Source: Opitutia bacterium (GTDB lineage: Bacteria > Verrucomicrobiota > Kiritimatiellia > CAIQIC01 > Lenti-01). From it: a stretch of 33,427 nt of DNA. Positions within the stretch are counted from its first letter, which is position 1; each line of letters begins with the position of its first letter. Location of the stretch: NCBI GenBank assembly GCA_009928955.1, contig SABN01000026.1:1-33427 (forward strand). Direction: 5' to 3'. This document shows, one piece after another, positions 1,612 through 5,250 of the stretch. A program made the translations under genes and the position numbers. Below the pieces are notes generated by a model that saw only the letters and a program-made list of their open reading frames with translations, was not told the origin of the DNA and ran no database searches.

Positions 1612-1643
1612 ATAGGACTGACCCCTTTACTGACCCCTTTACG
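1612..1643. repeat. Left inverted copy of a GGGGTCAG-type element flanking the cassette
   Basis: ATAGGACTGACCCCTTTACTGACCCCTTTACG: two tandem CTGACCCCTTTA units, inverted relative to the copies at 4050-4094 and 4234-4271. Confidence 0.7.
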
Positions 1644-1729: not shown

Positions 1730-2350
1730 ATGTTAGACAGCTTTTTAACCGGAAACAATGCGCAGCAGGAGCTCGACGTATTTCATAATATCGTGTCAGG
1801 GTTGACGGGATTTGACATCGACACCCAGACTCGAATTCTTCAATCCGCAATTACCTTTTTGAAATTAGGCAGGATTTCCTTAATCGGATCGGCGGAATTC
1901 TCTGCGCGCGAGGCCTCTAATTCAGTGCCATTGTCCGCACACAGTATTGTAGACACCTCAACCGTCGAACCAAAGCAGTTCATGATTGAAAAGGCACCTC
2001 ATACAGACATTGAAAGAGTTGCGTGCCTTGCATATTATCTAACTCATTATAGAGAAACACCCAACTTCACGACGTTAGAAATAAGTAAAACAAACACCGA
2101 AGCAGCTCAACCCAAGTTCGCGAATGCCGCTCAAGCCGTTAAAAACGCAACGTACCGCGGGTTCCTTGTCCCGAGCATTGGGGGGAAAAAACAACTTGGA
2201 GCGACAGGTGAACAGTTTGTACAGGCACTCCCAGATCGCGATGCCGCTAAGCAAGTGCTGATTCGCTTGCGCGTTAGAAAACAGCGAAAGGGGGGAGGTA
2301 AAATAAAGAATGAAGGTGCTGCGCATTCGGCCAATAAATCGGAGAAATAA
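1730..2350 (+). CDS. Uncharacterised protein, first gene of the ParA/RelA-like cassette; possible helical or winged-helix-like C-terminal region
   Basis: Open frame 1652-2350. ATG at 1730 is preceded by AGAAGGGGCAGG (SD-like), so MLDSFLTGNNAQQELDVF... is a plausible start; 1652 is the alternative. The C-terminal block IERVACLAYYLTHYRETPNFTTLEISKTNTEAAQPKFANAAQAVKNATYRGFLVP...LGATGEQFVQALPDRDAAK looks like a folded domain. Confidence 0.75.
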   Translation: MLDSFLTGNNAQQELDVFHNIVSGLTGFDIDTQTRILQSAITFLKLGRISLIGSAEFSAREASNSVPLSAHSIVDTSTVEPKQFMIEKAPHTDIERVACLAYYLTHYRETPNFTTLEISKTNTEAAQPKFANAAQAVKNATYRGFLVPSIGGKKQLGATGEQFVQALPDRDAAKQVLIRLRVRKQRKGGGKIKNEGAAHSANKSEK

Positions 2351-2352
2351 TA

Positions 2353-3339
2353 ATGCCTCTTGCGGCAAAGCGCCTCTGCATTTTCAACCACAAGGGGGGG
2401 GTTGGGAAGACCACTCTTACTGTTAATATTGCTGCCGCGCTTGCGGAATTGGGGAAAACGGTTCTGCTTATAGATTCTGACCCTCAGTGCAATCTTACCT
2501 CTTACCTTATCGAGGACTCGGTTGTAAACGACCTCTTGGAGAAATCAGATTCAGCAACTGGCGAAACAATATGGTCTGCCCTGAAACCCATAGTTGAGGC
2601 GCGGGGACAAATTCGTAAAATCCCACACCTAGAGACATCTATTCGTGGAGTATTTCTCATTCCTGGCGATATCCGCCTTTCAGAATATGAAGTTGAACTG
2701 AACGACTATTGGTCTGCTTGTTTCCAACGAAAAGTCAGAGGTTTTGATGGATCGGCCTCGTTAAGCACACTGGCGAGCATGTATGCCCGCGAAATCCGAG
2801 CGGATTATATATTTTATGATACTGGACCTAATATAGGACCCCTGAATCGCGTTATTTTACTTGATTGTGATTACTTCATTATTCCTGGAGCCTGTGATTT
2901 ATTTTCTGTTAGGGCGCTGCGCACCCTTGGGCTGACTCTAGCAAAATGGATTCGGGACTGGGCGGCAGTTTCAGTCTTGGCTCCCGACGGGGGGCAAATA
3001 CTTAAAGGCATGCCCCGTTTTCTAGGTTACATTCCTCAAGGTTTCCGCGTGTATGGTCACGGAATGGCGCGACGCGCCTCTGTTTACAAGTCACGCTTCG
3101 AAAAAGAACTAAGGGGCAATATTATTGCCTCGCTGCGGGCGATTGACCCCTCTCTCGCGGAACCACTCCTTCCCGACTCAAAAATTGGCGAAGTTAAAGA
3201 TTTTGCGGCTCTCGTTCAGGCGGGTCAAATGCAGGGTGTCCCATTGTGGAAAACCACTGACACTCAACAGTATCAACGGGACCAGGCGTTCACATCTTTC
3301 ATTGAGATTGCCGAGAACATCATTGCCAAAGCCACATGA
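2353..3339 (+). CDS. ParA/Soj-like P-loop ATPase
   Basis: Deviant Walker A FNHKGGVGKTTLTVNIAAALAELGKTVLLIDSDPQCNLTSYL; second motif DYIFYDTGPNIGPLNRVILLDCDYFIIPGACD. Confidence 0.9.
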   Translation: MPLAAKRLCIFNHKGGVGKTTLTVNIAAALAELGKTVLLIDSDPQCNLTSYLIEDSVVNDLLEKSDSATGETIWSALKPIVEARGQIRKIPHLETSIRGVFLIPGDIRLSEYEVELNDYWSACFQRKVRGFDGSASLSTLASMYAREIRADYIFYDTGPNIGPLNRVILLDCDYFIIPGACDLFSVRALRTLGLTLAKWIRDWAAVSVLAPDGGQILKGMPRFLGYIPQGFRVYGHGMARRASVYKSRFEKELRGNIIASLRAIDPSLAEPLLPDSKIGEVKDFAALVQAGQMQGVPLWKTTDTQQYQRDQAFTSFIEIAENIIAKAT

Positions 3340-4061
3340 GAAAACCCCGCAACAATGGAGAAGCCAAGACCGGGCTTAAGACGGCGATAGCGGAAATTGT
3401 GTCTAAATACGAAACACAGCGTTCAGAATTCGAAATGCTGGCTCAAACACTCCTCGCGAATCTCACTGAATTCCCACCCCTTAAGCCACTAATCCACTCT
3501 GCTAAATACCGCACAAAAGCCCCTGATCACCTTGTGGACAAGCTCTGGCGCATGTTCAACGCCGCAGAAAAAGCCAATAAATCCTTAGTTATTACCCCGA
3601 GCAACTTTTACCGAAAAGTTGAGGACCTCGCAGGAGTTCGCCTCCTCCATCTGCACACAAAGCAGATGGCCGATATTCATCCGCTCATTGTAAGCCTCCT
3701 TAACGAGCACAGGTACAGATTGATTGGAAGGCCTATTGCATATACATGGGACATCGAAAATCAGGCGTTCTTTTCGGGCATTGGTTTTAAAACACGACTT
3801 CGTCCCTCAATGTATACTAGCGTCCATTACATTGTAATGGCAAATCGACGGACCGAAATGCGGTGTGAGTTGCAGGTTCGCACCCTGATGGAGGAAGTAT
3901 GGGGCGAGGTTTCCCACACCATAAACTACCCTCATGAAACCAATATTCTGTGCTGTCGAGAGCAACTTAGGGTATTAGCACGCTCTGCATCGGCATGTAC
4001 ACGGCTTGTTGATTCAATCTTTTCCTCGCACTTAGATCATAAAAAAGAGAAAGGGGTCTGA
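3336..4061 (+). CDS. RelA/SpoT-domain nucleotidyltransferase-like protein (small alarmone synthetase or toxSAS-like)
   Basis: KYRTKAPDHLVDKLWRMF, DLAGVRLL, YTSVHYIV and CELQVRTLMEEVWGEVSHTINY match the order of RelA/SpoT synthetase-fold motifs. No HD hydrolase motif seen. ATG overlaps the parA-like stop (ATGA). Confidence 0.85.
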   Translation: MRKPRNNGEAKTGLKTAIAEIVSKYETQRSEFEMLAQTLLANLTEFPPLKPLIHSAKYRTKAPDHLVDKLWRMFNAAEKANKSLVITPSNFYRKVEDLAGVRLLHLHTKQMADIHPLIVSLLNEHRYRLIGRPIAYTWDIENQAFFSGIGFKTRLRPSMYTSVHYIVMANRRTEMRCELQVRTLMEEVWGEVSHTINYPHETNILCCREQLRVLARSASACTRLVDSIFSSHLDHKKEKGV

Positions 4062-4094
4062 AAAGTCGGAGAAGGGGTCAGGAGAAGGGGTCAG
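4050..4094. repeat. Cluster of AAGGGGTC(A/T)G units at the right of the cassette
   Basis: GAAAGGGGTCTGAAAAGTCGGAGAAGGGGTCAGGAGAAGGGGTCAG: three units in about 45 bp, opposite orientation to the left cluster. The first unit contains the stop codon of the RelA/SpoT-like CDS. Confidence 0.7.
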
Positions 4095-4151
4095 TTTCAT
4101 AAATTAATATTTCTGAAACGCTCTGCGGCTTGGTGTTTCAGCTCCAAATGG

Positions 4152-4376
4152 CCCCATTTTTCCCCGCGGACCAAGATCCCGCCCTTCGAATCCCGTCCGG
4201 CGCCAATTTTCCGAAAATTTCGCGTAAAATCCCGGAAAGGGGTCAGGAAAGGGGAAAGCGGTCAGTCCTATAATCTATAATTTTTGTCCCTCGCCCCCCC
4301 CATTTCCCCGCAGACAACCTCCCCGCCCTTCGAATCCCGTCCGGCGCCATTTTTCCGGCAATTTTGCGCTAAAAAT
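4152..4376. repeat. Imperfect tandem duplication of a noncoding unit (4152-4232 and 4300-4376)
   Basis: Both copies contain CCCCATTT..CCCCGC and CCCGCCCTTCGAATCCCGTCCGGCGCCA(A/T)TTTTCCG...TTTCGCG/TTTGCGC..TAAAA; each lies downstream of a GGTCAG element. Confidence 0.65.
4234..4271. repeat. Outer right copy of the GGGGTCAG-type element
   Basis: GGAAAGGGGTCAGGAAAGGGGAAAGCGGTCAGTCCTAT. Its reverse complement begins ATAGGACTGACC, matching the left copy at 1612. Confidence 0.7.
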
Positions 4377-5045
4377 CACGTTTTCGGGCCTCTCGGCCCC
4401 TCTCAGCGGTCCATGCCTCCGGCTTGGTAAACTCTGTGGCAAAATCGTTCGAATTTTTCGTGTTTTTCGTGCATTTCGTAGTTTCGGCCTCTCCTGGCCC
4501 ATAAAATCGGCATTTTGGGCTGATTTTTGCGGTTTTTGGCCTCAAGGACTCGACTAAAAGCCCTGAGCGTTGTCCGGCCGAATCGGAATCCGATCCGAAG
4601 AATTCCTCTCGCAAAGAGCGCCAAGCTTGCCACGCCAACGGCATGGTTCGCCAAGAGGCATCGGGCATCGCAAGGGCTTCTTTGCGCTCTCCGCGTCCTT
4701 GGCGAGAAAATGGACCGGGACGGGGTCTTGGGGACTTTAATTTTCTCGATGATCCGAAATTTCGCGCTAAAAATCCCGTTTTCAAGCTCTCGGCCCCCTC
4801 TTGGCGGCCCATGCCTCCGGCTTGGTAAACTCTGCGGCAAAATCGGTCTCAAATTGGCCCCAAAATCGGCGATTTTCGCCTCCTGCGGCATCCAACAGCA
4901 TCGGGAACTCACGGCCCCGATCGGGTGAACTTCTTGGCGACTTTGGCGAAAAAACGCCTGGATTTTCGTGTTTTTCGTGCATTTCGTAGTTTAGGACCTC
5001 TCCTGGCCCGAAAATCGGCATTTTTGGCCTGTTTTTTCGTTTTTT
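4369..5045. repeat. Interleaved noncoding repeat families: A (4369-4445 and 4769-4845) and B (4456-4525 and 4964-5045)
   Basis: A: TAAAAATC(A/C)CGTTTTC...CTCTCGGCCCC...ATGCCTCCGGCTTGGTAAACTCTG(T/C)GGCAAAATCG. B: TTTCGTGTTTTTCGTGCATTTCGTAGTTT(C/A)GG..CTCTCCTGGCCC..AAAATCGGCATTTT. Confidence 0.75.
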
Positions 5046-5101
5046 AGTCTGTTTTCGGCTTTTGGACGCCCCGAAGACTCCGTCGGGGTCATTTCCCGCG
5101 C

Positions 5102-5141
5102 CTGCCGGGTCATCGCCCCGGCCTACAGCAGATCCCGGCAG
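5102..5141. repeat. Inverted repeat / nested hairpin
   Basis: CTGCCGGG (5102-5109) pairs exactly with CCCGGCAG (5134-5141). Nested GCCGGG-TCATCG-CCCCGGC lies inside. Confidence 0.55.
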
Positions 5142-5250
5142 TTCTATCCCCCACCCTCTGTTTCCTCTGCGTCCTCTGTGGCAAAAAAACGCTTTTCGGC
5201 TGTTTCCGGGCTTGATTTTCGCGGCAAACCCCCTATAAATGGCCGGCCTT

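What the first reader, a model, noticed from the sequence alone, without database searches (positions are those of the whole stretch)
1730..2350. Unknown first gene of the cassette with a distinct C-terminal block
I cannot assign a family. The N-terminal part may be regulatory. The block from IERVACLAYYLTHYRE to LPDRDAAK has the size and pattern of a compact helical domain, perhaps winged-helix-like. Its lysine-rich tail suggests nucleic-acid or nucleotide contact. It is the most novel protein in the window.
Basis: inference. Interest (0 to 1): 0.6.

Follow-up and report, generated by a model that had tools for sequence, protein, structure and literature searches.

The report
Winged-helix gene of a toxin-type cassette
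The unassigned gene encodes a new, conserved winged-helix protein that, in 24 of 26 sampled relatives from about ten bacterial phyla, sits directly in front of a ParA-like ATPase and a small alarmone-synthetase enzyme, a three-gene module that looks like an undescribed anti-virus growth-shutdown system.

Summary
AlphaFold2 on a 28-member family alignment gives a confident winged helix (residues 81-180, pLDDT 94-98), an N-terminal two-helix segment, a disordered linker and a basic tail. The main result is context. Homologues found by gene 1 alone carry gene1-ParA-RelA/SpoT in the same order and strand in 24 of 26 loci, with gaps of -20 to +26 nt where measured. The synthetase keeps its catalytic residues and models as a RelP/RelQ/CapRel-like fold. 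One cassette lies between a DUF1156 methylase and a PLD helicase; others adjoin type II or III restriction-modification or HmaA genes. A two-gene ParA-synthetase form occupies the gpA-gpQ defence hotspot of P2-like prophages in two E. coli genomes examined (seven carry the pair). Distant gene-1 relatives precede HEPN or TIR-like genes instead. Best reading: a three-part abortive-infection module with gene 1 as adaptor or sensor, ParA as ATP-driven switch and the synthetase as toxic effector. Function is inferred; nothing was assayed. I found no published description in the papers I could search.

The parts
1730..2350 (+). Gene 1: 206-aa winged-helix protein, first gene of the cassette
1757..1858 (+). 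Gene 1 residues 10-43: N-terminal two-helix segment (H10-25, H30-43), motif L..LD.e.r.RvL..v.tF, also recognisable by eye in the distant relatives L047 and L080
1862..1969 (+). Gene 1 residues 45-80: low-confidence, variable linker
   Evidence: pLDDT 47-69, 32% mean identity
1970..2269 (+). Gene 1 residues 81-180: winged-helix domain (H81-88, H93-106, H115-124, H133-142, wing E146-148/E154-156, H158-166, start of H170-187)
   Evidence: AF2 pLDDT 94-98; Foldseek wHTH hits
2270..2347 (+). Gene 1 residues 181-206: basic C-terminal tail, basic in nearly all homologues
2353..3339 (+). Gene 2: ParA/MinD-type ATPase (328 aa), deviant Walker A KGGVGKTT; no ParB gene beside it
   Evidence: Pfam AAA_31 1.1e-27; conserved motifs; closest PDB entry by profile 3pg5, 4.4e-49
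3336..4061 (+). Gene 3: RelA/SpoT small-alarmone-synthetase-like enzyme (241 aa); start overlaps gene 2 by 4 nt
   Evidence: Pfam RelA_SpoT 1.4e-12; catalytic columns invariant; AF2 pLDDT 93, Foldseek RelP 2.5e-9, CapRel 4.3e-7
1612..1628 (+). Left arm ATAGGACTGACCCCTTT of an imperfect inverted repeat bracketing the cassette
   Evidence: I5, 94% complementary; motif dispersed in the genome
4255..4271 (-). Right arm AAAGCGGTCAGTCCTAT (as read on +), inverted copy of the left arm

Best explanation
Gene 1 is the adaptor or sensor subunit of a three-gene abortive-infection (phage-defence) module. Proposed mechanism: gene 3 is a small-alarmone-synthetase-type enzyme that, when released, transfers pyrophosphate from ATP to a nucleotide or to the tRNA 3' end and stops growth, as CapRel and FaRel2 do. 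Gene 2, a ParA-type ATPase, is the nucleotide-driven switch that holds gene 3 inactive or assembles with it. Gene 1 associates through its N-terminal helices, docks on ParA or the synthetase through the highly conserved helix 93-106 and the NTEAAQPKFSN turn, and uses the winged helix plus basic tail to sense or tether to nucleic acid or a phage product. Shown computationally: the gene, the winged-helix model, the conserved three-gene linkage, the intact synthetase site, and the defence and prophage contexts. Inferred: toxicity, the trigger, the contacts and the order of events.
For: 24 of 26 loci found by a gene-1 search carry gene1-ParA-RSH in order, same strand; in 24 cassettes measured, including the window and L004, gaps are -20 to +26 nt, and the distance matrices of the three proteins correlate (Mantel r 0.61-0.68, 0 of 5000 permutations as high), so the genes travel together. 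Synthetase columns D97, R102, Y160, H164, E178, Q180, R182 are invariant and line up with RelP/RelQ motifs; model and Foldseek agree, including CapRel, a validated anti-phage tRNA pyrophosphokinase. Defence context: L042 DUF1156_MTase-[cassette]-PLD_helicase; L048 [cassette]-type III Mod-Res with a mad3 match upstream; L030 [cassette]-HmaA; PADLOC candidate families beside L024 and L028; type II R-M beside L040. Integrases near L026, L034, L035, L036. The two-gene ParA-RSH form sits between gpA and gpQ of P2-like prophages (L084; E. coli J31 and CEA224S), the defence hotspot described in PMC9122126. ParA relatives pair with SIR2 or HEPN effectors, and distant gene-1 relatives with HEPN or TIR-like genes.
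Against: No assay exists. In this window the cassette stands alone between housekeeping-type genes, and most sampled loci show no recognised defence neighbour within 6 kb; the background rate of such neighbours was not measured. The ParA-RSH pair exists without gene 1 (L057, L084, L085), so gene 1 is not obligatory for a ParA-synthetase system. The ParA family also contains solitary plasmid and phage-associated ParAs (L021, L022). PADLOC has no model for gene 1 or the cassette.
Confidence: 0.58

Rival explanations
1. Gene 1 is the antitoxin and transcriptional autorepressor of a toxSAS-type toxin-antitoxin operon; ParA is accessory, and the operon mainly stabilises mobile DNA.
For: Small basic wHTH protein encoded first in a tight operon with a SAS-type enzyme, as is usual for TA antitoxins; mobile settings occur.
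Against: No upstream palindrome above shuffled background in any of 23 loci tested; the predicted recognition helix is weakly conserved and not basic; the ParA-synthetase pair persists without gene 1, so gene 1 cannot be the only neutraliser. TA function and phage defence do not exclude each other.
Confidence: 0.2
2. The synthetase makes (p)ppGpp or a related alarmone as a local stress signal with ParA and gene 1 as regulators, without a role against phage.
For: Closest folds by Foldseek are the SAS enzymes RelP and RelQ, and catalytic motifs are canonical.
Against: Patchy distribution (close gene-1 relatives are absent from nearly all genomes of the window's own class and phylum searched), nesting among R-M-type genes and prophage defence hotspots are unlike a housekeeping regulator.
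Confidence: 0.14
3. The cassette is a DNA-partition or positioning device (ParA plus a wHTH centromere-binding protein) to which an alarmone synthetase has been attached.
For: ParA motif set; small non-ParB partners are known for some ParA systems (own knowledge); ParA relatives on plasmids.
Against: Gene 1 has no ParB-family match; no iteron-like array or palindrome beside it in the window; hosts are mostly chromosomes and prophages; partition does not explain the constant synthetase partner.
Confidence: 0.08

Closest known systems
CapRel (fused toxSAS toxin-antitoxin, anti-phage)
   Same: SAS-type synthetase fold with the G-loop tyrosine and conserved arginines; prophage setting; probable growth-arrest effector
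   Different: CapRel carries its own C-terminal antitoxin and sensor; here regulation would come from separate ParA and winged-helix proteins
FaRel2/ATfaRel2 and other toxSAS TA pairs
   Same: Small synthetase encoded in a compact operon; tRNA 3'-CCA pyrophosphorylation is the documented activity of FaRel2 (PMC11559606)
   Different: Three genes; ParA-type ATPase present; substrate here untested
PARIS (AriA ATPase + AriB effector), a P4/P2 hotspot system
   Same: ATPase plus a translation-directed effector; the two-gene ParA-synthetase form uses the same kind of prophage or satellite hotspot (PMC9122126; L084, L085)
   Different: AriA is not ParA-like (own knowledge) and AriB is a Toprim nuclease (PMC12409363 abstract)
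Two-gene ParA-SIR2, ParA-HEPN and ParA-RSH loci (L018, L020, L023, L057, L084)
   Same: Related ParA-type ATPase encoded just upstream of an effector-type gene
   Different: No gene 1; plasmid ParAs are only 29-34% identical to the window ParA; effectors differ
MarR/IclR-type winged-helix regulators
   Same: Winged-helix fold
   Different: No sequence family match, Foldseek E no better than 0.039, no operator found, extra N-terminal two-helix segment and basic tail

Membership tests
Winged-helix domain proteins (fold level) | helix-helix-recognition helix-two-strand wing topology | tested here: met
   AF2 pLDDT 94-98 for residues 81-180, order H-H-H-H-E-E-H; wHTH proteins head the Foldseek list with prob up to 0.99, but E >= 0.039
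MarR/IclR or other curated HTH family | match to a curated family model | tested here: not met
   No Pfam, NCBIfam, PADLOC or PDB sequence match
DNA-binding autorepressor | palindromic operator upstream of the operon | tested here: not met
   Best inverted repeat in 120 nt upstream not above shuffles in 23 loci; a non-palindromic site is not excluded
Small alarmone synthetase / toxSAS (gene 3) | RelA/SpoT synthetase fold with conserved catalytic residues | tested here: met
toxSAS (gene 3) | toxicity by tRNA-CCA pyrophosphorylation or (pp)pApp synthesis | not testable with these tools
   Needs expression and biochemistry
CapRel | antitoxin fused at the C-terminus of the synthetase | tested here: not met
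   241-aa single-domain protein; model ends with one helix H205-238 after the synthetase core
ParABS partition system | deviant Walker A ParA ATPase | tested here: met
   KGGVGKTT and Asp motifs near-invariant
ParABS partition system | ParB-type adaptor gene next to parA | tested here: not met
   Immediate neighbours are gene 1 (no ParB match) and the synthetase in every full cassette
ParABS partition system | parS or iteron centromere site | tested here: inconclusive
   Only a repeat scan of window:1343-5238 and a short palindrome scan
Catalogued anti-phage system (PADLOC-DB 2.0.0) | match of the core genes to the catalogue | tested here: not met
   Gene 1 none; ParA and synthetase only weak partial hits
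Anti-phage system (function) | reduces phage propagation | not testable with these tools
   Only genomic context available

The most novel reading that the evidence does not exclude
Gene 1 founds a portable family of winged-helix adaptors that license quite different growth-arrest effectors (alarmone synthetase via ParA, HEPN, TIR-like), so that one sensing part has been combined with several toxins and with a second switch, ParA, across bacteria.
Probability: 0.35. Interest if true: 0.75.

Novelty: new variant of a known kind. Interest (0 to 1): 0.56.

Why it matters
If confirmed, it adds a three-part, ParA-linked way of unleashing an alarmone-synthetase-type toxin to the known anti-phage systems, gives a role to a group of ParA ATPases that have no ParB, and names a new winged-helix family that marks effector genes of undescribed systems. 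The E. coli two-gene form makes it directly testable in a laboratory strain.

Tried and rejected
Family assignment of gene 1 by Pfam, NCBIfam, PADLOC and PDB sequence searches: nothing. Plasmid tblastn with gene 1: none. Viral scan with gene 1: only the contig already found with ParA. Cassette as an IR-bounded mobile unit: the AGGACTGACCCCTTT repeat brackets the cassette but occurs at 17 places in the genome at up to 2 mismatches, and the other sites read lie beside unrelated genes, so it is recorded as a dispersed repeat, not as proof of mobility. Operator palindrome: none above chance. Retron Ec86 effector as a structural relative: rank 48, E 0.33, not used. The structure job was built without the distant relatives L002 and L003, because the tool names only certain sources as allowed. 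Papers: ten searches found no description of a wHTH-ParA-synthetase or ParA-synthetase defence system; the library lacks most subscription papers and all preprints, and supplementary tables (for example those of PMC9122126) could not be opened, so the E. coli pair may be listed there.

Full report
Observation. The ORF at window:1730-2350 is real: 206 codons on the + strand with ATG at 1730. The upstream in-frame ATG at 1652 shows no ribosome-binding site; AGAAGGGG precedes 1730. The gene is unique in its genome assembly of 3.42 Mb in 345 contigs.

Family. Gene 1 has no Pfam, NCBIfam or PADLOC match and no sequence relative in the PDB, alone or as a profile. A scan of one genome per species (84,980 species) with a two-sequence alignment returned 26 loci whose record titles name Acidobacteria, Proteobacteria, Bacteroidetes, Verrucomicrobia, Desulfobacterales, Marinimicrobia, Nitrospina, KSB1, Zixibacteria, Pseudobdellovibrio and others. 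Close relatives are rare within the window's own class and phylum, so the distribution is patchy.

Cassette. phmmer against the ORFs of those loci found a ParA homologue and a RelA/SpoT homologue directly downstream, same strand, in 24 of 26. The two exceptions are L047, where gene 1 precedes a 254-aa gene that by eye is HEPN-like with a C-terminal HTH but has no Pfam match, and L049, where gene 1 sits at a contig end next to an asparagine-synthase-type gene on the other strand. Because the search used gene 1 only, the linkage is not built in by the search. An IMG/VR contig, L004, also carries all three genes. In 24 cassettes measured (including the window and L004) the gaps are -20 to +26 nt, and the three pairwise distance matrices correlate (Mantel r 0.65, 0.61 and 0.68; none of 5000 permutations as high). 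One locus, L045, has all three genes broken by frame changes in an AT-rich bin; it is counted among the 24 by order, and sequencing error cannot be told from decay.

Structure of gene 1. AlphaFold2 on the 28-member alignment gives pLDDT 94-98 for residues 81-180, arranged as a winged helix, with a fairly confident N-terminal pair of helices (10-25, 30-43), a disordered linker, and a last helix running into a basic tail. Foldseek against the PDB lists winged-helix proteins among the first hits (IclR, MarR, MukE, MCM8-WH), with probabilities up to 0.99 but E-values no better than 0.039, so only the fold class can be named. Conservation peaks in helix 93-106 (94% mean identity) and the turn AAQPKFSN (85%); the predicted recognition helix is 57% conserved with net charge +0.4, the wing is +1.9, and the tail is +5.5. 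My inference: the conserved face binds a protein, and any nucleic-acid contact comes from the wing and tail. No palindrome above shuffled background precedes the operon in 23 loci.

Partners. Gene 2 is a ParA/MinD-type ATPase (AAA_31, 1.1e-27) with near-invariant KGGVGKTT and Asp motifs; its nearest solved relative by profile is 3pg5, an uncharacterised protein. No ParB gene lies beside it. Gene 3 matches RelA_SpoT (1.4e-12); D97, R102, Y160, H164, E178, Q180 and R182 are invariant over 26 sequences and align with RelP/RelQ motifs. Its model (pLDDT 93) matches RelP, RelQ and, at 4.3e-7, the anti-phage tRNA pyrophosphokinase CapRel. In CapRel the G-loop tyrosine is needed for phage protection (PMC9712102). 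Whether gene 3 makes an alarmone or modifies tRNA cannot be told from sequence here.

Defence context. In L042 the cassette lies between a DUF1156 methylase (4.6e-285) and a PLD helicase (1.9e-227), after a protein matching PADLOC candidate families. In L048 it is about 10 nt upstream of a type III methylase followed by a type III restriction subunit. In L030 it is followed by HmaA. A PADLOC candidate (PDC-S01) lies upstream in L024, another (PDC-S54) downstream in L028, and a type II methylase-endonuclease fusion next to L040. Integrases lie near L026, L034, L035 and L036. So 6 of the 24 cassette loci have a PADLOC-type neighbour among the genes I scanned; the background rate was not measured, and the others show ordinary neighbours or short contigs.

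Two-gene form. ParA-synthetase pairs without gene 1 were found in Caballeronia (L057) and two IMG/VR contigs. In L084 the pair lies between a replication gene A protein and the portal gene, followed by the terminase. A near-identical stretch (88% DNA identity over its full length) is in 7 of 5,426 complete E. coli genomes; in the two examined, J31 and CEA224S, it sits between the replication endonuclease and the portal gene of a P2-family prophage, with small accessory genes on the endonuclease side. That interval is the anti-phage hotspot described for P2-like phages; the P4-like one lies between psu and int (PMC9122126). L085 resembles the P4 case: an integrase follows and a weak Psu match (E 0.0099, below the curated cut-off) precedes.

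Other partners. ParA relatives at 29-34% identity precede SIR2 genes (Salmonella L018, Photobacterium L020) and a HEPN gene (Burkholderia L023); others stand alone on plasmids or near phage genes (L021, L022), so the ParA family is not defence-only. Distant gene-1 relatives precede genes with a weak TIR match (L002), a weak DUF4145/HEPN match (L079; by eye also L055), and, by eye only, TIR-like (L003, L080) or HEPN-like (L082) sequences. The by-eye labels have no model support.

Site. A congener, G001, keeps the adenosine-deaminase-like gene and the isocitrate-dehydrogenase-like gene with 1.3 kb between them and no cassette; the window has 3.8 kb there. An inverted repeat brackets the cassette at 1612-1628 and 4255-4271, but it belongs to a repeat dispersed through the genome.

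Interpretation. The most economical reading is a three-part growth-arrest module for phage defence: gene 1 adaptor or sensor, ParA switch, synthetase effector. The linkage, folds, active site and contexts are computed results; toxicity, trigger and interactions are inference. A toxin-antitoxin reading with gene 1 as antitoxin and repressor is the main rival and partly overlaps. Partition is unlikely without ParB.

Novelty. Each part is of a known kind. Gene 1 as a family, the three-gene combination and the ParA-synthetase pairing were not described in any paper found in ten searches of the open library, which lacks most subscription papers and preprints. The finding is rated a new variant of a known kind.

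Noticed in passing
window 1612-1640 and 4072-4271: AGGACTGACCCCTTT/AAGGGGTCAG repeats, inverted on either side of the cassette; 17 copies genome-wide at up to 2 mismatches, some in tandem, beside unrelated genes.
   Followed up: partly
window 4150-5200: Repeat-rich non-coding stretch with imperfect direct repeats of 78-91 nt (e.g. 4360-4450/4758-4848, 4455-4542/4963-5050) between the cassette and the next gene.
   Followed up: no
L045:5900-8300: All three cassette genes are interrupted by frame changes in an AT-rich Zixibacteria bin; assembly error or decay.
   Followed up: partly
L044:640-1641: ParA homologue with KGGVGETT instead of KGGVGKTT (Walker lysine replaced by glutamate); one genome only, could be an error or an ATP-dead variant.
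   Followed up: no
L008, L009: ParA relatives directly preceded by a SLFN_AlbA_2 protein (Pfam checked for L008), followed in L009 by what looks like a type I restriction R subunit: a further ParA-linked arrangement.
   Followed up: partly
L018:2902-5916: Salmonella plasmid operon DNA methyltransferase-ParA-SIR2_2 with tightly spaced or overlapping genes; looks like a separate ParA-SIR2 system.
   Followed up: partly
L058-L062: Other SAS-like genes on plasmids and in a Vibrio phage (Geobacillus, Paracoccus, Ilyobacter, Fusobacterium, PQ189348) without a recognised ParA beside them.
   Followed up: no
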